Shown piece by piece: positions 53,918 to 64,000 of a DNA stretch of 64,000 nt; the stretch's first letter is position 1; each line of letters begins with the position of its first letter. The translations under genes and the position numbers were made by a program. The notes under the pieces were generated by a model, which made no database searches, was not told the origin of the DNA, and was given only the letters and a program-made list of their open reading frames with translations. Origin of the DNA: Tistrella mobilis KA081020-065 (GTDB lineage: Bacteria; Pseudomonadota; Alphaproteobacteria; Tistrellales; Tistrellaceae); NCBI RefSeq assembly GCF_000264455.2, contig NC_017956.1:1595501-1659500 (forward strand), read 5' to 3'.

Positions 53918-54190
53918 ATGACCGGTATCGGACGGCTGATCCTGATCTGGGCGGCACTGCTGGTGCTGCTGGCGGCCACGGTGGCGGCAAGTGCCGTTCT
54001 CCACGGCGCGGCCAGCCTGACCGCCAGCCTGCTGATCGCCGCGATCAAGGCGGGGCTGATCTTCTGGTTCTTCATGCATCTGGGCGAAGAGGCGGGGCTC
54101 GTCAGGGTTATGGCGCTGGGCGCCATTGCCTGGCTCGGCATCCTCTTCGCGCTGTCGGGCGCCGACTACGCCACCCGCGGCTGGTGGTGA
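53918..54190 (+). CDS. coxD: Cytochrome c oxidase subunit IV (prokaryotic type)
   Basis: A 90-residue protein with three hydrophobic helices, including AAIKAGLIFWFFMHLGEE, the signature of bacterial subunit IV of caa3/bo3 oxidases. Two ATGs (53915, 53918) are in frame; the second has better spacing from GGTGAG. It is the last gene of the operon and converges with the sulfide gene cluster; only four bases separate the stops, so no room exists for a conventional terminator hairpin between them. Confidence 0.85.
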   Translation: MTGIGRLILIWAALLVLLAATVAASAVLHGAASLTASLLIAAIKAGLIFWFFMHLGEEAGLVRVMALGAIAWLGILFALSGADYATRGWW

Positions 54191-54194
54191 GCGA

Positions 54195-55886
54195 TCATTG
54201 CGCCGATGCGGGAAGGGCAGGTTTGGGTTTCGCCAGCCATTCGCGGCCACGCAGCATCGCTTTCCAGTACATCCAGGGCAGCATCCGTTCTTTCAGCAGC
54301 CAGGCGAGGTGGCTGGGCCGGCGGCCGTCGATCAGCCAGTTCGGGAAGCTCGGCAGCAATTTGCCGCCATAGCCGAATTCGGCGAGCACGATCCGGCCGC
54401 GCTCCACGGTCAGCGGGCAGGATCCGTAGCCGTCATAAACCGCGTCGCCCCCCGAAATCAGGCCCAGATCGCGCAGCAGATTGTGGGCCACGACCGGCGC
54501 CTGCTTGCGGGCGGCGGCCGCGGTCTTGGCATTGGGTGCGTTGCAGACGTCGCCCAGGCCATAGACGCCGTCATACTGCCGGTGCCGCAGGCTCGACGGG
54601 TCGACATCGACCCAGCCGTCCGCATCGGCAAGCGGCGAGACCTTCACGAAATCGGGCGCGCATTGCGGCGGCACGACATGGATCATGTCGAAACCGCGCT
54701 CCACCGTGCTGGTCTGCCCCGCGGCATCGGTGCGGGTGAACCAGGCGGTGCGGGCGGGCCCGTCGATGCGGGTCAGCCTTTCCTGGAAGCGGAGATGAAT
54801 GCCGTAGCGCTCCACATAGGACATCAGCGCCGGCACATAGTCTTTCACGCCGAACAGCACCGCCCCGGCGGTGCAGAAATTGATGTCGATCCCGGAGAGC
54901 ACAGCCTGCCGGCGCCAGTGGTCGGCGGACAGATACATCGCCTTCTGGGGTGCGCCCGCGCATTTGATCGGCATCGGCGGCTGGGTGAAGATCGCCCGAC
55001 CGCTCTTCATGCCCTGGACCAGCTCCCAGGTGTAAGGGGCCAGGTCATAGCGGTAATTCGAGGTGACGCCGTTGCGCCCCAGCGTCTCGGCCAGGCCCGG
55101 AATGGCGGTCCAGTCCAGCTTGAGGCCGGGGGCGACGACCAGCGCCCGCCAGGTGATCACCCGGCAGCCATCAAGGATGACGGCCCTGGCATCGGGCTCG
55201 AAGGCCGCCACAGCCGCTTTGATCCAGGTGACGCCCGGCGGGATCAGCGAGGCCATCGTCCGGGCGGTGGTGCGGGCATCGAACACGCCGCCACCGACCA
55301 TGGTCCAGCCCGGCTGATAGTAGTGGATATCGGCCGGATCGATGATCGCGATGTCGAGATCGGGCTTGCGGGCCTTCAGGCTGGACGCGGCGGCGATACC
55401 CGCGGCGCCACCGCCGACGATGACCACGTCGTGGTGGAGGCTGGTGCCATCCACCGGCGTGCGGCCGCCATTGGCGATCCGGCGGGCGACGCCGGTCATG
55501 TCGTAGCCGGCCGCTTTTGCGGCGGCGATGATTTCGGGCAGCGGCCGGCCGCGGGCGGCTTCGGCCAGCGACCAGAGCGTGGCCGAGCGCGTACCCGAAC
55601 GGCAATAGGCGAGCACCGGCCGCGGCAGGCGGTCGATCAGCCCGGCAAAGGCGCCGGCCTGGTCATCCGTCACCTTGCCCGAGGCGACGGGCAGAAAGGC
55701 GGCCTCGATCCCGGCGGCCTGTGCCGCCTGGCGGATTTCCTCGAAAACCGGCTGATCGGGGCCTTCGCCGTCGGGCCGGTTGCAGATGACCGCGCGAAAG
55801 CCGGCGGCGGCCAGATCGGCCATGTCTTCCGGATGGATCTGGGGCGCGACCGAGACTGTCGGCGACAGGGCGTGCGTGCGGGGCAT
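54195..55886 (-). CDS. Blh-type sulfur transferase/phosphatase-like domain fused to sulfide:quinone oxidoreductase
   Basis: A 563-residue fusion. Residues 1-115 form a DUF442/Blh domain with the phosphatase-like loop AYCRSGTRSATLW (Cys95). Residues 150-563 are an FAD-dependent sulfide:quinone oxidoreductase: dinucleotide loop VVIVGGGAAGIAAASSL, cysteine-containing QPPMPIKCAGAPQKAMY, and GLGDVCNAPNAKTAAAAR near the C-terminus. SQR oxidises sulfide at the membrane and passes electrons to quinone; the N-terminal domain probably handles the persulfide. The fusion is known from BigR-type sulfide operons. Convergence with the oxidase operon fits protection of heme-copper oxidase from sulfide. Confidence 0.9.
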   Translation of the reverse strand: MPRTHALSPTVSVAPQIHPEDMADLAAAGFRAVICNRPDGEGPDQPVFEEIRQAAQAAGIEAAFLPVASGKVTDDQAGAFAGLIDRLPRPVLAYCRSGTRSATLWSLAEAARGRPLPEIIAAAKAAGYDMTGVARRIANGGRTPVDGTSLHHDVVIVGGGAAGIAAASSLKARKPDLDIAIIDPADIHYYQPGWTMVGGGVFDARTTARTMASLIPPGVTWIKAAVAAFEPDARAVILDGCRVITWRALVVAPGLKLDWTAIPGLAETLGRNGVTSNYRYDLAPYTWELVQGMKSGRAIFTQPPMPIKCAGAPQKAMYLSADHWRRQAVLSGIDINFCTAGAVLFGVKDYVPALMSYVERYGIHLRFQERLTRIDGPARTAWFTRTDAAGQTSTVERGFDMIHVVPPQCAPDFVKVSPLADADGWVDVDPSSLRHRQYDGVYGLGDVCNAPNAKTAAAARKQAPVVAHNLLRDLGLISGGDAVYDGYGSCPLTVERGRIVLAEFGYGGKLLPSFPNWLIDGRRPSHLAWLLKERMLPWMYWKAMLRGREWLAKPKPALPASAQ

Positions 55887-56133
55887 GGGATGGTTACTCC
55901 CGTCGGGGCCGGTCCGGTGTGGTCGCGTGCGGGCATGCGCCCTCGCGCGCGGCGCAGGATCGTCAGGATCGGCCGGTGATATATAACCTGTAATTGAGAA
56001 GCCGGCCGGACTACCGCGTGGCGAGGCCTGCGCGGATCGGCCCTTGCGTGGCCGGCTCAGCCGGTGGCCGGGGACGGGACCATGGGGGTTTCCTCCTGTT
56101 CTTGATATGTCTGTGTCTGCAGGGGCCGTGCGT

Positions 56134-56916
56134 TCAGATGGCGAGGCCGAAAGCGGCAGCGTTGCGATAGAGCATGTAGAGGGCGACCACGAAGACGAGG
56201 CCCGCGAAGATGCGGTTCAGCACCGCCTTGCGGGTGGCCAGGCGGCAGGCGAGCTGCATACCGAGATAGCCGCCGGCCAGGCCGCCGACGATGTATTCGG
56301 CCGCGATCGGCCAGTCGACCAGGCCCGAGGCTGCGTAACTGGCGGCGGTGGTGAGGCCGAGCGCACCCACCGCCAACAGTGACGAGCCCACCGCATAGAG
56401 CATCGGCATGCCGGTCGAGAAGATCAGGCCGGGCACGATCAGAAAACCGCCGCCGATCCCGAAGAAGCCCGACAGCAGCCCGACACAGGCGGCGGCCAGG
56501 ATGACCAGCGGCAGGCGCCGGGGTTCATGAGCGCCGCTTGCGCCACCGCCGCTGCCGCGGCGCAGCATCAGCACACCTACCGCCATCATCAACAGGGCGA
56601 AAAGGAACAGCAGACGCTGGCCGTCGACATCCTTGCCGATCCGCGACCCGATGGCGGCACCGCCGACACCGATGGCGGCAAACAACCCGGCATCGCGCCA
56701 GCGGACATTGCCGGCCCGGGCGTGACCGGCAAAATTGGCGAAGGCATTGAACGAGACCGCGAGCGCGCCGGTGCCGATCGCCGCATGGGGCGGCAGGCCC
56801 ACGACATAGAGCAGCAGCGGCGTCGCCATGATCGAGCCGCCGCCGCCGATCAGGCCCAGCGTGAAGCCGACGAGACCGCCGGAGGCGACGGCGAGGATCG
56901 ATTGCAGCACCATCAT
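56134..56916 (-). CDS. TauE/SafE family exporter (second copy, sulfide cluster)
   Basis: A 260-residue membrane protein with about eight helices. Both TauE repeats are visible: GFTLGLIGGGGSIMATPLLL near the N-terminus and GLLSGFFGIGGGFLIVPGLI near residue 140. In sulfide-responsive operons this family exports sulfite or thiosulfate produced from persulfide. It lies between the SQR fusion and the ArsR regulator on the same strand; gaps of about 250 and 100 bases leave room for own promoters. Confidence 0.9.
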   Translation of the reverse strand: MMVLQSILAVASGGLVGFTLGLIGGGGSIMATPLLLYVVGLPPHAAIGTGALAVSFNAFANFAGHARAGNVRWRDAGLFAAIGVGGAAIGSRIGKDVDGQRLLFLFALLMMAVGVLMLRRGSGGGASGAHEPRRLPLVILAAACVGLLSGFFGIGGGFLIVPGLIFSTGMPMLYAVGSSLLAVGALGLTTAASYAASGLVDWPIAAEYIVGGLAGGYLGMQLACRLATRKAVLNRIFAGLVFVVALYMLYRNAAAFGLAI

Positions 56917-57012
56917 GGTCGGGTTCCCTTTCGCCCGCGTGGCGTAACCCGGATGGTCGCGGGGGCGCGGGTCTGCCCGGCGGCCGTTGTCTATGGCTTT
57001 GTCTTCAGCGCC

Positions 57013-57414
57013 TTACCGCTCCCCCACCACGGCGAAAGTCGCAGCCGGCGTCAGGCGTCGCGTGGGTGTGGCAGGTCTGGCAGGGGCGGTGGTCGCCGGA
57101 ACCGCAGCCGGTATGGGGGCAGCTTCGGCGCCCCCGAAGCCCTGCCGCAGCAGGCCCAGAAGCTGCTCGGCATGGCCGGGCGTGACCCGGTAGAAGATCG
57201 TCCGGCCCTCGCGCCGCCCGGTGATCAGCCCGGCCTCGCGCAGCTCCCCCAGATACTGCGACAGGCTGGGCTGGCGGATGCCGAGGGCCTCCTCGATCCC
57301 GCCGACCGCGCATTCGCCCTCCATCAGAAAGAAGGCGACACGCAGCCGGGCCGGATGGGCCAGCACCCGCAGCCGGGCGGCGCCTTCGGTGACGGCTTCG
57401 GGATCCAGGCTCAT
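57013..57414 (-). CDS. ArsR family transcriptional regulator (BigR/SqrR-like)
   Basis: A 133-residue winged-helix repressor. The domain runs from RLRVLAHPARLRVAFFLMEG through ALGIRQPSLSQYLGELREAG to REGRTIFYRVT (about 15-85), close to BigR and SqrR, which sense persulfide by a disulfide or tetrasulfide between two cysteines. Only one cysteine is visible (Cys35, in EGECAVGG); the second expected in the C-terminal helix is missing. The last 40 residues are an Ala/Pro/Thr-rich tail. Its start overlaps the peroxiredoxin stop by four bases, so they form one operon. Confidence 0.85.
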   Translation of the reverse strand: MSLDPEAVTEGAARLRVLAHPARLRVAFFLMEGECAVGGIEEALGIRQPSLSQYLGELREAGLITGRREGRTIFYRVTPGHAEQLLGLLRQGFGGAEAAPIPAAVPATTAPARPATPTRRLTPAATFAVVGER

Positions 57415-58079
57415 CTGCGGTCTCCGGTCGGGCTGTCGGGCAGGGGGCCGGTGCGGAAATACCAGTCGGTTCCGGGGGCCTGGCGGTCGAAAAGGGTGTC
57501 GGGCGAGATGTCGACCGGCAGGATCACGTCGTCGCCGGGCATCCAGCCCTCGGGGGTGGCGACATCATGGGCGTCGGCGGCCCGGAGGGCGGCGACCAGG
57601 CGCAGCAGCTCCGCGACATTGCGGCCGGTGGTCATCGGATACCAGCTGATGGCGCGGATGATGCCCATCGGATCGATCACAAAGGCCGCACGCACCATCG
57701 AGGCATCGGGTGCGTTGGGGGCGATCATCCCATAGGCGCGGGCGATGGCCATCGACGGGTCTTCGACGATCGGGAACGGGATCTTCACCCCGAACTGGTC
57801 GTGGATGCTGCGGATCCAGGCGACATGCGAGAACAGGCTGTCGACCGACAGCGCCAGCAGATCGCAGTCCAGGGCCGCAAAGCGGTCGGCTGCCCGGGCG
57901 AAGGCGATGAATTCGCTGGTGCAGACGGGGGTGAAGTCGGCGGGGTGGGAGAACAGCAGCAGCCAGCGCCCCCGATAATCGGCGATCGCCCGGTCGCCCA
58001 TGGTCGTCCGCGCCCGGAATTCGGGGGCGGGATCGTGAAGCAGGGGCGGCCCCTGGCGGATGATGGGCTGGTCGGTCAT
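57411..58079 (-). CDS. Peroxiredoxin, 1-Cys Prx6-type
   Basis: A 222-residue thioredoxin-fold peroxidase that reduces peroxides, and possibly persulfide-derived oxidants given its context. The peroxidatic Cys53 is in LFSHPADFTPVCTSEF, the conserved Arg in MVRAAFVIDPMG, and the long C-terminal region with TTGRNVAELLRLV and ATPEGWMPGDDVILP marks the Prx6 subgroup. A second Cys (Cys72) is not at a resolving position. It is translationally coupled to the ArsR gene and sits directly behind a strong AT-rich palindrome. GAGGAG precedes the ATG. Confidence 0.92.
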   Translation of the reverse strand: MTDQPIIRQGPPLLHDPAPEFRARTTMGDRAIADYRGRWLLLFSHPADFTPVCTSEFIAFARAADRFAALDCDLLALSVDSLFSHVAWIRSIHDQFGVKIPFPIVEDPSMAIARAYGMIAPNAPDASMVRAAFVIDPMGIIRAISWYPMTTGRNVAELLRLVAALRAADAHDVATPEGWMPGDDVILPVDISPDTLFDRQAPGTDWYFRTGPLPDSPTGDRR

Positions 58080-58100
58080 CCCGGCTCCTCGCAGCTCGGC

Positions 58101-58141
58101 ATTTCATATTCTATGAAATGGCATATCGATAGAATATGAAA
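58101..58141 (-). promoter_or_regulatory. AT-rich operator palindromes before the peroxiredoxin-ArsR operon
   Basis: A perfect 13-bp inverted repeat (TTTCATATTCTAT at 58102-58114, ATAGAATATGAAA at 58129-58141; 14-base spacer) is interlocked with a second palindrome, ATTTCAT-ATTCT-ATGAAAT (58101-58119). It starts 22 bases upstream of the ATG, where promoter and repressor site would overlap. ArsR-family proteins such as BigR bind AT-rich palindromes of this kind, so autorepression by the ArsR product is likely. Confidence 0.72.
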
Positions 58142-58186
58142 AGGCCAAGTATGAGTCCAGGCGGGATTTTTCCGGCCGGGGCCGGG

Positions 58187-58654
58187 TCAACGCAGGGGCA
58201 GGGCGACGCTCTGCTTCACCGTCTGGCTGGGGACATCGGTCTTGATGTTGCGCACGCCCTTCACCCGGCTGAGGTGGTTGGCCTGGAAGCGGCGGTAATC
58301 GTCCAGATCGGCGGCGACAACCCGCAGCAGGGCGTCGCAATCGCCCAGCATGATGTAGCATTCGACCACCTCGGGAAATTCGCGCACCGCGGCGATGAAG
58401 CGGTCGATGGTCTCGGCATCCTGCGCCTCCAGCCAGATCCGGGCGAAGAGCGACAGCGGCAGGCCGATCTTCGCCGGGTCGACCACGGCGGCGTAGCGAC
58501 GGATGATGCCAGCCTCTTCCAGCAAGCGCACCCGGCGCAGACAGGGGGAGGGCGACAGCCCCACCTCGCGCGCCAGTTCCACATTCTGCATCCGGCCGTC
58601 GCGCTGCAGGGCACGGAGGATCCGCTTGTCGATCTCGTCCAGTTTTATCGGCAT
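58187..58654 (-). CDS. Lrp/AsnC family transcriptional regulator
   Basis: A 155-residue regulator. The helix-turn-helix domain begins KLDEIDKRILRALQRDGRMQ and includes VELAREVGLSPSPCLRRVRL; the RAM/ACT ligand domain follows, with VVECYIMLGDCDALLRV near residue 97 where amino acids bind. ATG at 58654. It is divergent from a LysE-type exporter gene with a perfect palindrome between, the usual arrangement in which the Lrp protein senses an amino acid and switches on its efflux. Confidence 0.92.
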   Translation of the reverse strand: MPIKLDEIDKRILRALQRDGRMQNVELAREVGLSPSPCLRRVRLLEEAGIIRRYAAVVDPAKIGLPLSLFARIWLEAQDAETIDRFIAAVREFPEVVECYIMLGDCDALLRVVAADLDDYRRFQANHLSRVKGVRNIKTDVPSQTVKQSVALPLR

Positions 58655-58678
58655 GTGACCGGCCTTCGGCGCAAAAGA

Positions 58679-58695
58679 TTGGCATCTGATGCCAA
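58679..58695. promoter_or_regulatory. Palindromic operator between Lrp and LysE genes
   Basis: TTGGCAT-CTG-ATGCCAA is a perfect inverted repeat with a three-base centre, and a further TGGCATC lies at 58711-58717. It is 25 bases from the Lrp start and about 105 from the LysE start, so the Lrp-type protein could control both genes from here. Confidence 0.6.
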
Positions 58696-58799
58696 GTATC
58701 GGGCGCTGGCTGGCATCTTCGCAACCCGATTGCCGGGCCGTGCGGCTATCGTCTGACGATGAACCTCCGGTGGTGGAGGCGGGGCAGGCGGGGGTGCGG

Positions 58800-59420
58800 A
58801 TGGGCTGGGAATGGATGGCCTCGGTGGTGGTCTTCGCGATCGCGATGTCGGCGACGCCCGGACCGAACAACACCATGCTGACCGCATCGGGGGCCAATTG
58901 GGGCTTCCTGCGCAGCCTGCCGCATATGGCCGGGATCAGCCTGGGGGTGACCGTCATCCTGGCGGCCGTCGGCGCCTTCGGCTCGCCGCTGGTTGCCGCA
59001 CCCGGGGTGCATGACGTGCTGAAATGGGCGGGCATCTGCTATCTGCTCTGGCTGGCCTGGAAGATCGCGACGGCCCGGCCCGCGCCGGAGGGCACGCCCG
59101 CAGGCAGCGGCGGGCGCAGCCGACCGCTCAATAGTCTGGAAGCTGCCGCCTTCCAGCTGGTGAACCCGAAATTCTGGGTGATCGCGGCCAGTGCCATGGT
59201 CACCTATGTGGGCGAGGGTGAAGGGGCGGGCGGCACGCTGTTGCCGGCGATCACCCTGGCTCTGGTCTTCGGCATCGTCACCTTTCCCTGCTCGGTGCTG
59301 TGGACGCTGGTCGGCGTGGGGGCCGGCCGGCTGCTGCGCACGGCCGGGGCACTTCGGACCTTCAACATCGTCATGGCGGCCCTGCTGGTCGCCTCGCTGA
59401 TCCCGATCGTTCTGGACTAG
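58800..59420 (+). CDS. LysE family amino-acid exporter
   Basis: A 206-residue inner-membrane protein of the LysE/RhtB superfamily with about six hydrophobic segments. The N-terminal signature SATPGPNNTMLTASGANWGF is near residues 18-37, and the middle has LKWAGICYLLWLAWKIA and AAAFQLVNPKFWVIA, both conserved in the family. ATG at 58800. Control by the divergent Lrp-type regulator is likely; the exported amino acid is unknown. Confidence 0.9.
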   Translation: MGWEWMASVVVFAIAMSATPGPNNTMLTASGANWGFLRSLPHMAGISLGVTVILAAVGAFGSPLVAAPGVHDVLKWAGICYLLWLAWKIATARPAPEGTPAGSGGRSRPLNSLEAAAFQLVNPKFWVIAASAMVTYVGEGEGAGGTLLPAITLALVFGIVTFPCSVLWTLVGVGAGRLLRTAGALRTFNIVMAALLVASLIPIVLD

Positions 59421-59532
59421 GGCAGGTCCGGTCGACGGCGGTTTGCAGGACAGCAGGGCAGGATTGACGCCGGTCGCGGATCGTGGATGAAATCTGCAGT
59501 CTGAACCAAGCCGTCCGCTCTCCGGTGCCCCT

Positions 59533-60864
59533 TTGCTCAAGCTCGCCTTTCTCCTGATTGGTCCCGATGCATTCAGGGCGCGATGGTATGCGCTCGCCGG
59601 TGCCGGAGCCTTCCTGCTCGCCATCGCTGCCGCGTTGATGGCGGGCCTGTCTCCCACGCTGACCATTGCGACCTATCTGGCGCTTGGTCTCGCATTTCTG
59701 GGCTCGGGCCTGCTGATGGCGGTGGTGGCAGTCGCCTCGTCGGGGCCGCGCCGCTGGCTGGCGCTTGCCCGGCCGATGATGGCCATCCTGGCCGGACTGC
59801 TGATCCTGGGTACGGCCTTCGAAACCGGCTGGCTGTTGTCGACGGCCTTTGCGATCGCCTTCATCCTGGACGGGGCATTCCGCATCCTGATGACCCTGCT
59901 CACCCGCTTTACCGGCTGGGTGACCTCGATCGCCTGCGGCATCGCCGAACTGATCCTGGCGGTGATGATGCTGGCGGGCTGGCCGTTTTCCGGCGCGTGG
60001 AACGTGGCGTTCTGCATCGGCCTGTTCATCGGTCTGTCGGGCTGGCTGCTGATCCGGCTGGGCCTGCTGCTGCGCGGGCTGGAGGACGAGGCCGCGATCC
60101 TGCTGCTCCCGGTCTTCTCGGGGCGCGGCTGGTATGATCATGCCCCGGTGCTGATCGGCGAGGCGCCGCCACGCGGCCCCGACGACCCGCCGATCGTGGT
60201 GCGGATCTGGATGCCGGCGGGGCCGGAGCGGACCCGGGCGGGCCGGCCGGTGATCGATCGCTATCTGGGGGCGCAGGATGACGAGGGGGTGTTCTCGGGC
60301 GGCCATGCCTCTCTGGAGCTGGCGCCGGACCTATATATCAGCCATTGGCCTGCGTCCGATTTCGACCTGAACGGGCGGGGGCTGATGACCGTGTTCAGTT
60401 CGCGTGCGGACAATGACATGGCCGGAAGTTTTCAGCGCAGCTATGAGGAAGAGGCTGCCGACTGGCGACCGGCCGATCTCAGGATCGAAGTCCACCGTTT
60501 CAACCCGCGGCGGCTCAAGGCCTTCTGGGCCGGCTACAAGCAGGATGCCACCTACAATATCACCAACCGCAACTGTTCGGTTGTGGTGGCGGCCGGGCTG
60601 GATGCGGCGCTGGAAGGCGTGCTGGCCGGGCGTCACCCCTGGCTGCGCTTGCTGGGGCTGATGATCGACCCCGATCTCTGGGTGGCGGCGATGATCCGCA
60701 CCCGGGCCTCTTCGATGACCTGGACGCCGGGGCTGGTGCTGGACTATGTCCGCATCCTGGTCCGGATCGTGGAGCGGCGGGATGTGTCCTGGGGGCGGCG
60801 GTTCCGCGGCTTTCTGGGGCGGGTCGATGGTGAGATCACCGACAGGGGAGCGCCGGCGGCATGA
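59533..60864 (+). CDS. HdeD-like membrane protein fused to a cysteine-peptidase-like domain
   Basis: A 443-residue protein. Residues 10-185 contain six hydrophobic helices with the three-fold two-helix pattern of HdeD/DUF308 acid-resistance proteins (for example AIAFILDGAFRILMTLLTRF). Residues 200-443 are soluble and include GGHASLEL near 257 and, about 90 residues later, YNITNRNCSVVVAAGLDAAL. A His before an Asn-Cys is the order found in circularly permuted papain/NlpC-like enzymes such as YiiX or DUF4105 proteins. The start appears to be TTG, with a weak ribosome site. The stop overlaps the next ATG. The HdeD part is moderately sure; the peptidase reading is inference. Confidence 0.7.
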   Translation: MLKLAFLLIGPDAFRARWYALAGAGAFLLAIAAALMAGLSPTLTIATYLALGLAFLGSGLLMAVVAVASSGPRRWLALARPMMAILAGLLILGTAFETGWLLSTAFAIAFILDGAFRILMTLLTRFTGWVTSIACGIAELILAVMMLAGWPFSGAWNVAFCIGLFIGLSGWLLIRLGLLLRGLEDEAAILLLPVFSGRGWYDHAPVLIGEAPPRGPDDPPIVVRIWMPAGPERTRAGRPVIDRYLGAQDDEGVFSGGHASLELAPDLYISHWPASDFDLNGRGLMTVFSSRADNDMAGSFQRSYEEEAADWRPADLRIEVHRFNPRRLKAFWAGYKQDATYNITNRNCSVVVAAGLDAALEGVLAGRHPWLRLLGLMIDPDLWVAAMIRTRASSMTWTPGLVLDYVRILVRIVERRDVSWGRRFRGFLGRVDGEITDRGAPAA

Positions 60865-62045
60865 CCGGAACCGAGGCGACCGCGACCGAAGACGGCGCAA
60901 CCGAAGATGAGGGCGCTCCGCGAGGCAATCTTCTGTCGCGGGCGGCAGTCATCGCCACCGCGACCATGTTTGGCCTGACCTATTCACTCAGCGCGGCGCT
61001 GATCGCGCTCGACCTCGACCGGCGGGATCTGGACCCGGCCGCGATCGGGGCGAATGCGGCGATGCATGCGTTGGGCGTGCTGGCCATGGCCTTCCTGCTG
61101 CCGCGGGTGGTGCCGCGTCTCGGCATCCGTCGCATGGTTATCCTGTCGCTGGTGCTGGCGGCGGTGGTGCTGGTGCTGTTTCCGGCGACGCCGGTCTGGG
61201 TGTGGTTCGTGCTCCGCCTGCTGCTCGGAGCCTCGTCCGAAACCCTGTTCGTGCTCTCGGAAACCTGGACCAATGCGCTCGCCACCGAACGCAGCCGCGC
61301 GCAGGCCATGGCGATCTACACGGCAGCACTCTCGGTCGGTTTTGCGGCCGGCCCGGCCATCCTGGCGGCCATCGGCTCGGAAGGCGCGACCGCCTATGTC
61401 GTCGGTGCGGCGATCGCGGCCGGTGCGGCGCTGTTCGTCGCGGCCCCCAAAGTGACCGCGCCGGCCTTCGAGCACCCGGTGAAGAAAAGCCCGCTCTACT
61501 TCATGCGGCTCGCCCCGGTCGCGATCGCGGCGATCATGCTGAATGCGGCGCTCGAAACCTCGGGCCTGTCGTTCCTTGCCCTCTATGCCGGAAATCTGGG
61601 CTGGAGCGAGAGCGGCGCCACGGGGCTTATGTCGGTGATGATGGTGGGCGCCATCCTGCTGCAGCTGCCGATCGGCTGGATCGGCGACCGCATGGACCGG
61701 ATGCTGCTGGTCCGGATTCTGGCGGTCGTCGCGGGGCTGGGCGCCCTGGTCTGGCCGCTGGCACTGGGCCACCAGATCGTGACCTGGGTGCTGCTGTTCG
61801 TCTGGGGCGGCGCCTTCGTCGGCGTCTACACCATCATGCTCGCCGTTGTCGGCAGCCGCTTCAAGGGCGGCGACCTGGTCGGCATCTATGCCGCCATGGG
61901 GCTGATGTGGGGCGTGGGCGCGCTGCTCGGGCCGGTGCTCGCCGGGGCGGCCATGGATGCCACCCGCCACGGCCTCGCCTTCTTCGCGGCGGCCGCCTGC
62001 TTCGCCTTCGTGGCGGCAAGCCTGATCAGGCCGCGGGTGGCCTGA
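60861..62045 (+). CDS. MFS transporter
   Basis: A 394-residue, 12-helix major-facilitator permease of the YcaD/UMF-type group, with cytoplasmic loops typical of the family (for example GWIGDRMDRMLLVRILAVV near residue 275) and the paired domains starting AVIATATMFGLTYSLSAAL and PVAIAAIMLNAALETSGLS. The N-terminal 25 residues are polar. Substrate is unknown. It overlaps the preceding gene by four bases, so both are co-translated. Confidence 0.87.
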   Translation: MTGTEATATEDGATEDEGAPRGNLLSRAAVIATATMFGLTYSLSAALIALDLDRRDLDPAAIGANAAMHALGVLAMAFLLPRVVPRLGIRRMVILSLVLAAVVLVLFPATPVWVWFVLRLLLGASSETLFVLSETWTNALATERSRAQAMAIYTAALSVGFAAGPAILAAIGSEGATAYVVGAAIAAGAALFVAAPKVTAPAFEHPVKKSPLYFMRLAPVAIAAIMLNAALETSGLSFLALYAGNLGWSESGATGLMSVMMVGAILLQLPIGWIGDRMDRMLLVRILAVVAGLGALVWPLALGHQIVTWVLLFVWGGAFVGVYTIMLAVVGSRFKGGDLVGIYAAMGLMWGVGALLGPVLAGAAMDATRHGLAFFAAAACFAFVAASLIRPRVA

Positions 62046-62058
62046 TCAGGAAGGGGGC

Positions 62059-62439
62059 TCACCCGATCCGGTGGCCGGCGGCGCTGAGCGCTGCAATCAC
62101 CCGCTCCCTGTCGGCCGCCTGGACCAGCAGATAGTCGGTATCGAAGGTCGAGACCAGGAAGATACCGATCCCGTCGGCCGCCAGCGGCTGCAGAACCGCG
62201 ACGGCGATGCCGGTCTCGTCGAAGGCGAAGGGGCCCTGGAATTTGAAGCAGGACCAGGCCCGGTCTGCCCTGACATCGCCGGGCACCCGCTCGGCCAGGC
62301 ACACCACCGACAGCTCGTCGGCGGTGCGCGAGATCGAGACGAAACCCGGCCCGTCGGCCCAGCCTGGAATGGGGGCAAGGGGATCGAGCCGGGCGACGGC
62401 GTAGGTTCCGGACAGGGGGAGGAGGGTGATCCGTCTCAT
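62059..62439 (-). CDS. ACT domain-containing protein
   Basis: A 126-residue soluble protein with two ACT-like halves: the first from LPLSGTYAVARLDPLAPIPG to LSVVCLAERV, the second from FKFQGPFAFDETGIAVAVLQ to YLLVQAADRERVIAALSAAG. Such stand-alone ACT proteins (ACT_7 type) are thought to sense amino acids or other small ligands. It converges with the MFS gene with 13 bases between stops and is the second gene after the AhpD-like gene on the minus strand. Confidence 0.82.
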   Translation of the reverse strand: MRRITLLPLSGTYAVARLDPLAPIPGWADGPGFVSISRTADELSVVCLAERVPGDVRADRAWSCFKFQGPFAFDETGIAVAVLQPLAADGIGIFLVSTFDTDYLLVQAADRERVIAALSAAGHRIG

Positions 62440-62469
62440 GTTCCGGAACCTCTGTGGGGTGGGTGATGG

Positions 62470-63054
62470 TCAGCGGCCGAGGGTGTAGAATTCGTCGTTC
62501 GGCCGCATGCGGGTGACATTGGCCATGCGGTTCGACAGGCCGAAGAAAGAGGCGATGCCGGCGATGTCCCAGGCATCTTCTTCGGTGAAGCCATGGGCGG
62601 CGAGGGTGGCGAAATCCGCTTCTTCCACCGCATAGGCCTCGAACGAGACCTTCATCGCGAAATCGAGCATGGCGCGCTGACGCTCGGTGATGTCGGCCTT
62701 GCGATAGTTGATCGCCACCTGATCCGCGATCAGCGGGTTCTTGGCCCGGATGCGCAGGATGGCGCCATGGGCGACGACGCAATACTGGCACTGATTGAGA
62801 TTGCTGGTGGCGACCACGATCATCTCGCGCTCGGCCTTGGTCAGGTTGCCGGGCTTGTCCATCAGCGCGTCGTGATAGGCGAAGAAGGCGCGGAATTCAT
62901 CCGGCCGGCGCGCCAGTACCACGAAGACATTGGGGATGAAGCCCGATTTCTCCTGCACCTTGAGCAGGCGGTCGCGGATGTCTTCGGGCATCTCGTCGAG
63001 CGAGGGCACCGGGAAGCGGCTGATCGGCAGGGTGGCGGGTGCGGTGTCGGTCAT
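62470..63054 (-). CDS. Peroxidase-related (AhpD/carboxymuconolactone decarboxylase-like) protein
   Basis: A 194-residue all-helical protein of the AhpD-like family. The redox pair is the CXXC in NLNQCQYCVVAHG near residues 87-99, with His two residues further, the usual AhpD active site. The N-terminal region PEDIRDRLLKVQEKSGFIPN and the C-terminal AGIASFFGLSNRMANVTRMRP match the uncharacterised peroxidase-related subfamily. It probably reduces alkyl peroxides. It lies in a short minus-strand run with the ACT gene and the AcuI-like gene, with no convincing terminator between. Confidence 0.9.
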   Translation of the reverse strand: MTDTAPATLPISRFPVPSLDEMPEDIRDRLLKVQEKSGFIPNVFVVLARRPDEFRAFFAYHDALMDKPGNLTKAEREMIVVATSNLNQCQYCVVAHGAILRIRAKNPLIADQVAINYRKADITERQRAMLDFAMKVSFEAYAVEEADFATLAAHGFTEEDAWDIAGIASFFGLSNRMANVTRMRPNDEFYTLGR

Positions 63055-63107
63055 GGCGGGGCGTTTCCGTTGGGGAGGGATTCTTAAGCGGCGGGCGGAG
63101 GCGATTG

Positions 63108-64000
63108 TCAGCCGAGCTCCGGGTTCACAGGCACGACCACGCGGCCGCGGACCTTGCCTTCAAGAATGCGGGCGGCGGTGGGGATCACCTCGTCGAAGCC
63201 GATTTCGGTGGTCAGCTCGTCGAGAAGCGCCGGGTCGAGGTCGCGGCCGAGGCGCTGCCAGGCTTCCAGCCGGTCGGGCCTGGGGCACATCACACTGTCG
63301 ACGCCGGCAAGCGTGACGCCGCGCAGGATGAAGGGGGCGACGGTCGCCGGCAGCGACATGCCGCCGGCCAGGCCGCAGGCGGCGACCGTGCCGCGATACT
63401 TCATCTGGGCGCAGATATTGGCGAGGGTCTGGCCGCCGACCACGTCGACCGCACCGGCCCAGCGCTCTTTCGCAAGCGGCTTGCCCGGCTCGGCAAAGGG
63501 CGCGCGGTCCATGATGTCGGCGGCGCCGAGCCGCGTCAGATAATCGGCCTCTTCGGGCCGGCCGGTCAGGGCCACGACCCTGTAGCCGAGCTTCGCCAGC
63601 ACGGCGACGGCTACAGAGCCGACACCGCCCGCCGCACCGGTGACCAGCACCTCGCCCTTGTCGGGGGTGACGCCGTGACGCTCCAGCGCCAGCACGCAGA
63701 GCATGGCCGTGTAGCCGGCCGTGCCGATGGCGGCCGCCTGACGCAGGGTGAAGGGGCTGGCGAGCGGCACCAGCCAGTCGCCCTTCAGCCGGGCCTTGCC
63801 GGCAAGCCCGCCCCAATGCACCTCGCCCACGCCCCAGCCGTTCAGCACCACCCGGTCGCCGGGCTTCCAGTCGGCATGTTCCGAGCTTTCGACCACACCG
63901 GCCAGGTCGATGCCGGGCACCATGGGGAAGCTGCGCACCACCGGGCTCTTGCCGGTGATGGCGAGGCCGTCCTTGTAGTTCAGCGTCGACCAGCCGACCT
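63108..64000 (-). CDS. acuI: AcuI/YhdH-type NADPH oxidoreductase (acrylyl-CoA reductase-like), cut by the right edge
   Basis: A medium-chain dehydrogenase without zinc. About 297 C-terminal codons are visible; the frame continues to the right edge with [13 protein letters not shown], so only some 30 N-terminal residues are missing. Typical motifs are [12 protein letters not shown], the nucleotide-binding [20 protein letters not shown], the [14 protein letters not shown] stretch and the ending [14 protein letters not shown]. AcuI/YhdH reduces acryloyl-CoA to propionyl-CoA with NADPH and protects against acrylate. Gene name by similarity of motifs only. Confidence 0.87.

What the first reader, a model, noticed from the sequence alone, without database searches (positions are those of the whole stretch)
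59533..60864. HdeD-like membrane domain joined to a putative permuted cysteine peptidase
The N-terminal two-thirds-membrane part is HdeD-like; the soluble half has His (GGHASLEL) followed about 90 residues later by Asn-Cys (NRNCS). This His-before-Cys order fits permuted papain-like enzymes. A stress-related membrane peptidase or amidase is possible; the gene is co-translated with an MFS carrier.
Basis: partly seen in the sequence, partly recalled or inferred. Interest (0 to 1): 0.55.

Follow-up and report, generated by a model that had tools for sequence, protein, structure and literature searches.

The report
HdeD-like membrane protein with cysteine-enzyme domain
This gene encodes a protein in which a six-helix membrane anchor is joined to what looks like a cytoplasm-facing cysteine enzyme, probably of the kind that moves or cuts fatty acyl groups; the same joined protein recurs sparsely across proteobacteria, often beside a transporter gene, and its function is untested.

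Summary
Window 59533-60864 (+) encodes 443 residues: a six-helix HdeD/DUF308-like membrane part (about 11-183) and a soluble part (about 219-425). I aligned 36 further distinct homologues from Alpha-, Beta- and Gammaproteobacteria, down to 30% identity. All 37 rows have both parts; His258 and Asn347-Cys348 are invariant (37 of 37). The papain-like reading rests on weak signals at the Cys motif (Pfam Lnb_N in 24 of 37 members, RTE1-like in 5; a MARTX chain in the PDB, E 0.068, nearly tied with an unrelated chain) and on His-Tyr-Cys order and spacing. Charges put the soluble part in the cytoplasm (37 of 37), unlike periplasmic Lnb. The MFS gene overlaps by 4 nt; its subfamily lies beside the fusion in 11 of 36 context loci (10 of 16 alpha). 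Best reading: a membrane-anchored, cytoplasm-facing permuted papain-like thiol enzyme on acyl-lipid bonds, with the MFS as carrier where present. 'Stress-related' has almost no support. New variant of a known kind; confidence 0.5.

The parts
59533..60864 (+). CDS, 443 aa: HdeD-like membrane domain fused to a His...Cys soluble domain
   Evidence: 36 further homologues aligned full length
59563..60081 (+). Six-helix HdeD/DUF308-like membrane domain, residues about 11-183, predicted N-in/C-in
   Evidence: helices 11-36, 41-68, 74-93, 99-124, 129-147, 155-190 in the AlphaFold2 model (ten-residue blocks mostly pLDDT 60-80); K/R bias in 37 of 37 rows; DUF308 in 29 of 37
60187..60807 (+). Soluble putative permuted papain-like domain, residues about 219-425, predicted cytoplasmic
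   Evidence: mean column entropy 1.36 bits (residues 220-410) vs 2.00 for residues 1-183; Lnb_N match in 24 of 37 members
60304..60306 (+). His258, proposed catalytic base (GGHASLEL)
   Evidence: 37 of 37 rows; role inferred
60340..60342 (+). Ser270, candidate third polar residue 12 residues after His258 (Glu262 is the alternative, 36 of 37)
   Evidence: 37 of 37 rows; role inferred
60553..60555 (+). Tyr341, candidate active-site tyrosine, 7 before Cys (Tyr335, 13 before, is the alternative, 35 of 37)
   Evidence: role inferred
60571..60576 (+). Asn347-Cys348, proposed nucleophile motif (NRNCS)
   Evidence: 37 of 37 rows; role inferred
60721..60732 (+). Invariant Trp397-Thr-Pro-Gly400 motif
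   Evidence: 37 of 37 rows
60861..62045 (+). MFS transporter CDS overlapping the fusion by 4 nt; same subfamily beside the fusion in 11 of 36 context loci

Best explanation
A membrane-anchored thiol enzyme of the circularly permuted papain-like (permuted NlpC/P60) kind. The six-helix HdeD-like part holds the catalytic domain at the cytoplasmic face of the inner membrane. Cys348, activated by His258 (with Ser270 or Glu262 orienting it, and Tyr341 or Tyr335 as the active-site tyrosine), attacks an acyl linkage of a lipid, forms an acyl-thioester and passes the acyl group to an amine, a hydroxyl or water: an acyltransferase or a lipase/lipid amidase. Where it is present, the neighbouring MFS carrier would move the substrate or product across the membrane, as LplT does for Aas. 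Shown: the fusion, the invariant residues, the charge bias, the gene linkage. Inferred: fold, chemistry, substrate, role of the carrier.
For: His258 and Asn347-Cys348 are invariant in 37 of 37 rows down to 30% identity, and no other His or Cys of the window protein is. Order and spacing fit known permuted enzymes: His-Cys 90 here, 70 in PPPDE1 and 105 in BcPPNE by the residue numbers of Xu 2011; Tyr-Cys 7 and 13 here, 7 in PPPDE1 and 13 in YiiX, though 27 in BcPPNE. The Pfam families that hit the soluble part of more than one of the 37 members are Lnb_N (24, best 9.3e-5, one seen over the cut-off) and RTE1 (5, best 0.097); in the 13 Lnb_N and 5 RTE1 matches whose coordinates I saw, the Cys-motif end is covered. 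The top PDB row with the soluble alignment is 5xn7_A, a MARTX chain, E 0.068. Papers place DUF4105/Lnb, RID of MARTX and LnsA among or next to papain-like enzymes, with lipid or fatty-acyl activities for Lnb, RID, Tox-Act1 and LRAT-type members. K/R bias gives N-in/C-in in 37 of 37 rows. The MFS subfamily is adjacent in 11 of 36 loci at 43-97% identity, against 25% for the best paralogue in the own genome. Lipid-type genes recur nearby: a separate Lnb_N gene in 4 of 36 loci, one of these with a patatin, and a VTT-domain (DedA) gene in another.
Against: No usable structure: both AlphaFold2 models are below pLDDT 50 over most of the soluble part, and fold searches with them gave nothing. Comparison with seven separate Lnb_N proteins failed: hhalign score 13 over 31 columns, and hmmsearch ranked shuffles above them. 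The 5xn7 hit is not significant, an unrelated chain (6vj2, foldase, E 0.092) is nearly tied, and with the full-length alignment 5xn7 was second at E 1.1. The window protein alone has no meaningful hit on its soluble part. Single members also hit other families there (Reeler E 0.0072 in L070, DASH_Dad4 E 0.34 in L072). A second Cys column (312) is Cys in 34 of 37 rows, though Arg in the window, so a structural Cys pair in relatives is possible. The segments counted as inside are longer than those counted as outside (about 62 vs 26 residues per row), but the per-residue bias is still about sevenfold. The 11 of 36 loci are not all independent. No LplT model is among the MFS matches. 6 of 16 alpha and 19 of 20 other context loci lack this MFS neighbour. 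Activity and substrate are unknown.
Confidence: 0.5

Rival explanations
1. A membrane-anchored cysteine peptidase or peptide amidase, cutting a peptide bond at the cytoplasmic face.
For: Papain-like folds include many peptidases; annotation names some homologues 'protease'.
Against: The permuted families it resembles, where the papers report activity, act on lipid or acyl bonds. No Pfam peptidase family is among the 18 families listed at E 1 or better for the 37 members (HMMER's filters may drop weak ones).
Confidence: 0.2
2. A periplasmic Lnb-type lipoprotein N-acyltransferase with the catalytic domain outside.
For: Lnb_N is the closest Pfam family on the soluble part (24 of 37); separate Lnb_N genes sit beside the fusion in 4 of 36 loci.
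Against: K/R bias is N-in/C-in over six helices in 37 of 37 rows; the own genome has an ordinary Lnt (286 bits, cut-off 132.9); only the Cys-motif end of Lnb_N matches in the 13 cases seen.
Confidence: 0.1
3. Not a papain-like enzyme: His258 and Cys348 serve a structural, redox or metal role in a family-specific fold.
For: No confident model; direct profile comparison failed; a second Cys column is present in 34 of 37 rows.
Against: Only one His and one Cys are invariant, and the second Cys is missing in the window protein itself; weak matches converge on papain-like families.
Confidence: 0.15
4. A stress or acid-tolerance HdeD protein whose tail only regulates it.
For: HdeD-like membrane part; E. 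coli homologues are named 'HdeD family acid-resistance protein'; an annotated IraM anti-adapter lies about 2 kb from the E. coli plasmid copy (its stress role is recalled).
Against: The tail is more conserved than the membrane part; apart from IraM I noticed no acid- or heat-tolerance gene in the annotated stretches (the CH34 stretch carries no annotation).
Confidence: 0.05

Closest known systems
Lnb / DUF4105 (Pfam PF13387 Lnb_N)
   Same: Asn-Cys motif and membrane association; Pfam matches the Cys-motif end in the 13 of 24 matching members whose coordinates I saw
   Different: One member seen over the cut-off; the His half does not match; predicted cytoplasmic instead of periplasmic; membrane part N-terminal and HdeD-like
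RID of MARTX toxins and the IcsB-like fatty acyltransferases
   Same: Top PDB row is a MARTX chain with the Cys stretch aligned (E 0.068); an inverted papain-like fold acting on fatty acyl groups (passages)
   Different: Not significant and nearly tied with an unrelated chain; those are secreted effectors, this is a membrane protein of the cell itself. That 5xn7 is RID is recalled
YiiX/BcPPNE, LRAT and PPPDE1 permuted papain-like enzymes
   Same: His...Tyr...Cys order; Tyr-Cys spacing 13 (YiiX) or 7 (PPPDE1)
   Different: No Peptidase_C92, LRAT or PPPDE match at E 1 for the 37 members
LnsA plus LnsB of Staphylococcus aureus
   Same: An enzyme likened to permuted NlpC/P60 members that needs a polytopic membrane protein (passages)
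   Different: Two separate genes, secreted enzyme, CPBP-like membrane partner rather than HdeD-like
HdeD (DUF308)
   Same: Six-helix membrane part; DUF308 in 29 of 37, NCBIfam HdeD in 23 of 37
   Different: Carries an extra domain of about 200 residues; the window protein scores 7.4 bits against the 189-bit HdeD cut-off
LplT-Aas lysophospholipid remodelling pair
   Same: Carrier plus acyltransferase working at the cytoplasmic face (abstract); analogy only
   Different: No sequence relation seen in the scans made

Membership tests
Permuted papain-like (permuted NlpC/P60) enzymes | His precedes Cys, both invariant | tested here: met
   37 of 37 rows
Permuted papain-like (permuted NlpC/P60) enzymes | Papain-like core with His and Cys in contact | tested here: inconclusive
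   AlphaFold2 mean pLDDT 47.2 and 44.7; fold searches uninformative
Permuted papain-like (permuted NlpC/P60) enzymes | Conserved tyrosine before the Cys | tested here: met
   Tyr341 37 of 37 (spacing 7), Tyr335 35 of 37 (spacing 13); which one acts is not known
Lnb_N (PF13387, DUF4105) | Pfam score over the curated cut-off | tested here: not met
   Window protein has no match. Of 20 homologues scanned singly only L070 passes (22.5 vs 22.2 bits); L070 is also the best of all 37
Lnb_N (PF13387, DUF4105) | Periplasmic domain | tested here: not met
   K/R bias predicts cytoplasmic in 37 of 37 rows; a prediction, not an experiment
Lnb_N (PF13387, DUF4105) | Lipoprotein N-acyltransferase activity | not testable with these tools
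   needs a bench assay; an ordinary Lnt is present in the own genome
HdeD / DUF308 | Six-helix membrane domain matching DUF308 | tested here: met
   family level: 29 of 37 members, best 3.1e-6; of 20 scanned singly only L030 passes the cut-off (27.8 vs 25 bits); the window protein does not (15.2 bits)
HdeD / DUF308 | NCBIfam HdeD equivalog cut-off (189 bits) | tested here: not met
   window protein 7.4 bits
Peptidase_C92 (YiiX) and LRAT | Pfam match | tested here: not met
   no match at E 1 listed for 37 members; remote kinship is not excluded

The most novel reading that the evidence does not exclude
A bacterial, chromosome- and plasmid-borne fatty acyltransferase fixed to the cytoplasmic face of the inner membrane by an HdeD-like anchor. 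It would be kin to toxin fatty acyltransferases and to Lnb but used on the cell's own proteins or lipids, and be coupled to a dedicated MFS lipid carrier: a further lysophospholipid- or protein-acylation system besides Aas-LplT and Lnt.
Probability: 0.2. Interest if true: 0.75.

Novelty: new variant of a known kind. Interest (0 to 1): 0.5.

Why it matters
The fusion is named inconsistently in public records (HdeD family acid-resistance protein, protease, MFS transporter, TctB family, DUF308, DUF4105, hypothetical), so a possible enzyme with a fully conserved His and Cys goes unseen. If it is an acyltransferase, it gives an HdeD-like membrane domain a biochemical partner, extends the Lnb/RID group from periplasmic and injected enzymes to a membrane-anchored enzyme of the cell's own cytoplasm, and offers a simple test with C348A.

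Tried and rejected
Fold searches with these models gave nothing usable: for the soluble model weak helical or enolase-type rows and no papain-like chain in the 50 rows shown of each search; for the full model helical-bundle matches, best Z 9.8 to a fumarase.

Profile comparison with seven separate Lnb_N proteins gathered here failed: hhalign score 13 over 31 columns at the Cys motif; hmmsearch with the soluble-domain HMM ranked shuffled sequences above the real ones (20 shuffles and one reversal of each protein). The His half therefore has no sequence support from Lnb_N. No shuffled control was run for the Pfam count of 24 of 37.

Rows dropped: L073 (Pseudomonas silvicola plasmid, broken frame) from the alignments, though it stays among the 36 context loci; the G409 hit (78-residue frame, E 8.7e-4), taken as chance, so 16 rather than 17 of 398 genomes are convincing; hits L010-L012, which match only the membrane part. 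L006's MFS (27% identity) and an MFS_1 gene two genes upstream of L061 were not counted as the partner. Of 44 plasmid records with a match I fetched 12. One row's genome (G616, L039) and the window itself are not among the 36 context loci.

Searches with no relative: two viral-contig scans, phages, Rfam in 54000-64000 at gathering threshold, PADLOC on 4 proteins (one chance-level PglZ line). Peptidase_C92 and LRAT loci were fetched for a profile comparison; the first script for it failed; later eight C92 frames, some of them short pieces, were put in the hmmsearch, and none is in the part of the listing that I printed; LRAT loci were not used. Promoter scan 58600-62600: no sigma-70-like site; 2 terminator-like sites against 1.5 expected.

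Literature: DUF4105 in 2 papers, neither with HdeD in the main text; of papers with at least 3 of HdeD, papain-like, NlpC, acyltransferase, DUF308, none of the 10 listed of 18 holds HdeD or DUF308. HdeD or DUF308 alone: 189 papers, 25 listed, titles and starts of abstracts seen. These searches found no report of the fusion; most subscription papers are not covered.

Full report
What is there. Window 59533-60864 (+) is an open frame of 443 residues with a TTG start. The start is credible: in the alignment, 33 of the 36 other rows start in the same column and two more within four residues. Codon differences from the same-genus genome (80 synonymous, 20 non-synonymous of 442; 19/4/85 by position) show purifying selection on this frame. 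The next gene, an MFS transporter (60861-62045; MFS_1 E 7.3e-31), overlaps the stop by 4 nt.

The family. Grouping those with identical last 150 residues left 38 groups; one, L073, is broken and was dropped. The alignment A4 has 37 rows; the named ones are Alpha- (Ancylobacter, Roseomonas, Agrobacterium, Chelatococcus, Ochrobactrum), Beta- (Pandoraea, Cupriavidus) and Gammaproteobacteria (Escherichia, Providencia, Cedecea, Pantoea). All 37 carry the membrane part. Although searched with the soluble half alone, I found no convincing stand-alone soluble form among the loci I read; 32 plasmid records were not read. Presence is sparse: 7 of 385 genomes of the class (three of them of the window's genus); 17 of 398 of the phylum, one of them taken as chance; 1 of 369 in the class of G607, that one being G607 itself; only part of the first-look candidates was scored in these searches. 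Further: 3 of 5426 E. coli genomes, all on plasmids, and 3 of 3 held genomes of the window's order, all one genus.

Residues. Of all His and Cys in the window protein only His258 and Cys348 are invariant (37 of 37; His271 is 18 of 37, Cys161 22 of 37). Column 312 is Cys in 34 of 37 rows but Arg in the window. Also invariant are Asn347, Ser270, Tyr268, Tyr341, Trp226, Trp383, Trp397-Thr-Pro-Gly400, Asp404 and Tyr405; Glu262 is 36 of 37 and Tyr335 35 of 37. The soluble part is better conserved than the membrane part (mean column entropy 1.36 vs 2.00 bits). In Xu et al. 2011 (PMC3142127, passages read) permuted papain-like enzymes have His before Cys and a conserved tyrosine before the Cys; from their residue numbers the Tyr-Cys spacing is 13 in YiiX, 7 in PPPDE1 and 27 in BcPPNE. 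Here Tyr335 and Tyr341 lie 13 and 7 before Cys348. Which one acts, and whether Ser270 or Glu262 is the third residue, is inference.

Fold evidence and its limits. The soluble part of the window protein alone has no meaningful match. Scanning all 37 members, the Pfam families with soluble-part hits in more than one member are Lnb_N (24 of 37, best 9.3e-5) and RTE1 (5 of 37, best 0.097). I saw coordinates for 20 members scanned singly: all 13 Lnb_N matches lie in the profile from position 106 on, the end with the Cys motif, and one member just passes the cut-off (L070, 22.5 vs 22.2 bits); the five RTE1 matches cover the Cys motif and two of them (L043, L033) reach further back. Single members also hit Reeler (L070) and DASH_Dad4 (L072) there. 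With the soluble alignment A6 the top PDB row is 5xn7_A, E 0.068, aligned over the Cys-motif stretch and, negligibly, around the His; a foldase chain, 6vj2_A, is nearly tied at E 0.092, and with the full-length alignment 5xn7 was second at E 1.1. That 5xn7 is the RID structure is recalled; PMC10318531 (passages) cites it as a MARTX papain-like fold and treats RTE1/TMEM222 and DUF4105 as papain-like families. Against the reading, direct comparison with seven separate Lnb_N proteins failed, and both AlphaFold2 models are unusable for the soluble part. I therefore call the fold likely, not shown.

Topology. The six helices come from the moderately confident part of the model, with hydropathy in rough agreement. 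Lys and Arg per row average 2.70, 2.14, 1.68 and 3.11 in the N-terminus, loops 2-3 and 4-5 and after helix 6, and 0.03, 0.27 and 0.24 in loops 1-2, 3-4 and 5-6; the sign is the same in 37 of 37 rows. The first set of segments is longer (about 62 against 26 residues), but per residue the bias is still about sevenfold. This predicts N-in and C-in, hence a cytoplasmic soluble part. Pfam calls Lnb_N a periplasmic domain.

Context. Of 36 context loci (they include one same-genus locus, four Ancylobacter, three from one genome and the broken L073, so they are not all independent) the window's MFS subfamily lies beside the fusion in 11 (43-97% identity): downstream on the same strand in L022, L023, L049, L050, L051, L052, L054 and L069, upstream in L074, divergent in L056, convergent in L071. 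These are 10 of 16 loci of the window's class or of named Alphaproteobacteria, and 1 of 20 others. Annotated coordinates give a 4-nt overlap in L022, L023 and L074. The best paralogue in the own genome is 25% identical. In L021, L024, L057, L067 and L071 a MASE1 protein lies upstream (tblastn), and in L063 a divergent one (Pfam). A separate Lnb_N gene lies within about 1 kb in L024, L062, L067 and L074, while only 2 of 41 genomes searched had any Lnb_N match (a different set of genomes, so a rough yardstick). L074 adds a patatin-like phospholipase, L023 a VTT-domain (DedA) gene, and L020, L021 and L024 an SMR transporter. The own genome has no Lnb_N match and an ordinary Lnt (286 bits). The Ancylobacter loci and most of the unnamed non-alpha loci showed none of the panel genes as a shared immediate neighbour.

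Mechanism. From PMC12994826 (passages): DUF4105/Lnb and the toxin Tox-Act1 are sister permuted NlpC/P60 clades; Lnb is a lipoprotein N-acyltransferase; Tox-Act1 is a phospholipase whose toxicity needs its His and Cys. From PMC13059803 (passages): RID and IcsB are fatty acyltransferases with an inverted papain-like fold. From PMC7387801 (passages): LnsA, whose best HHpred hits are permuted NlpC/P60 enzymes, works with a polytopic membrane protein in lipoprotein N-acylation. [quoted passage not shown] The best-supported reading is thus a cytoplasm-facing, membrane-anchored thiol enzyme on acyl-lipid bonds, with the MFS as carrier where present. Donor, acceptor and the carrier's cargo are unknown. 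[quoted passage not shown]

Novelty. Public labels for the homologues are inconsistent, and the literature searches found no description of the fusion. It is a new variant of a known kind: a known type of membrane domain joined to a domain related, at most remotely, to known permuted thiol enzymes, with a predicted side of the membrane opposite to Lnb.

Changes made on checking: the start-codon count, the number of homologues scanned singly, the nearly tied PDB row, the second Cys column, the IraM neighbour and the unequal loop lengths were corrected or added.

Noticed in passing
window 54195-55886 (-): A BLH-phosphatase domain (residues 7-110) fused to a pyridine-nucleotide oxidoreductase, next to a TauE exporter and an ArsR-type regulator: looks like a sulfur-handling cluster.
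   Followed up: partly
L024 6645-7265, L067, L062 6684-7445, L074 3562-4557: Separate Lnb_N (DUF4105) genes sit beside the fusion in four loci. By eye the Cedecea one has no membrane helix, whereas the Ochrobactrum one has several at its N-terminus.
   Followed up: partly
L021, L024, L057, L067, L071 and (divergent) L063: A MASE1-domain membrane protein lies next to the fusion; of the two scanned, L024's showed only MASE1 and L063's MASE1 plus a sub-cut-off PAS match.
   Followed up: partly
L048 (G037), frame of 317 aa: A partial Lnb_N match (24.1 bits, profile 99-158) near the C-terminal end of a longer soluble protein with a GH...NCT pattern; might be a polymorphic-toxin-like form.
   Followed up: no
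L073 (Pseudomonas silvicola plasmid p1): The homologue there is broken into pieces, apparently decaying.
   Followed up: no
L060, L061, L062 (G607): One genome carries three copies of the fusion in different neighbourhoods, one of them with an Lnb_N gene nearby.
   Followed up: no
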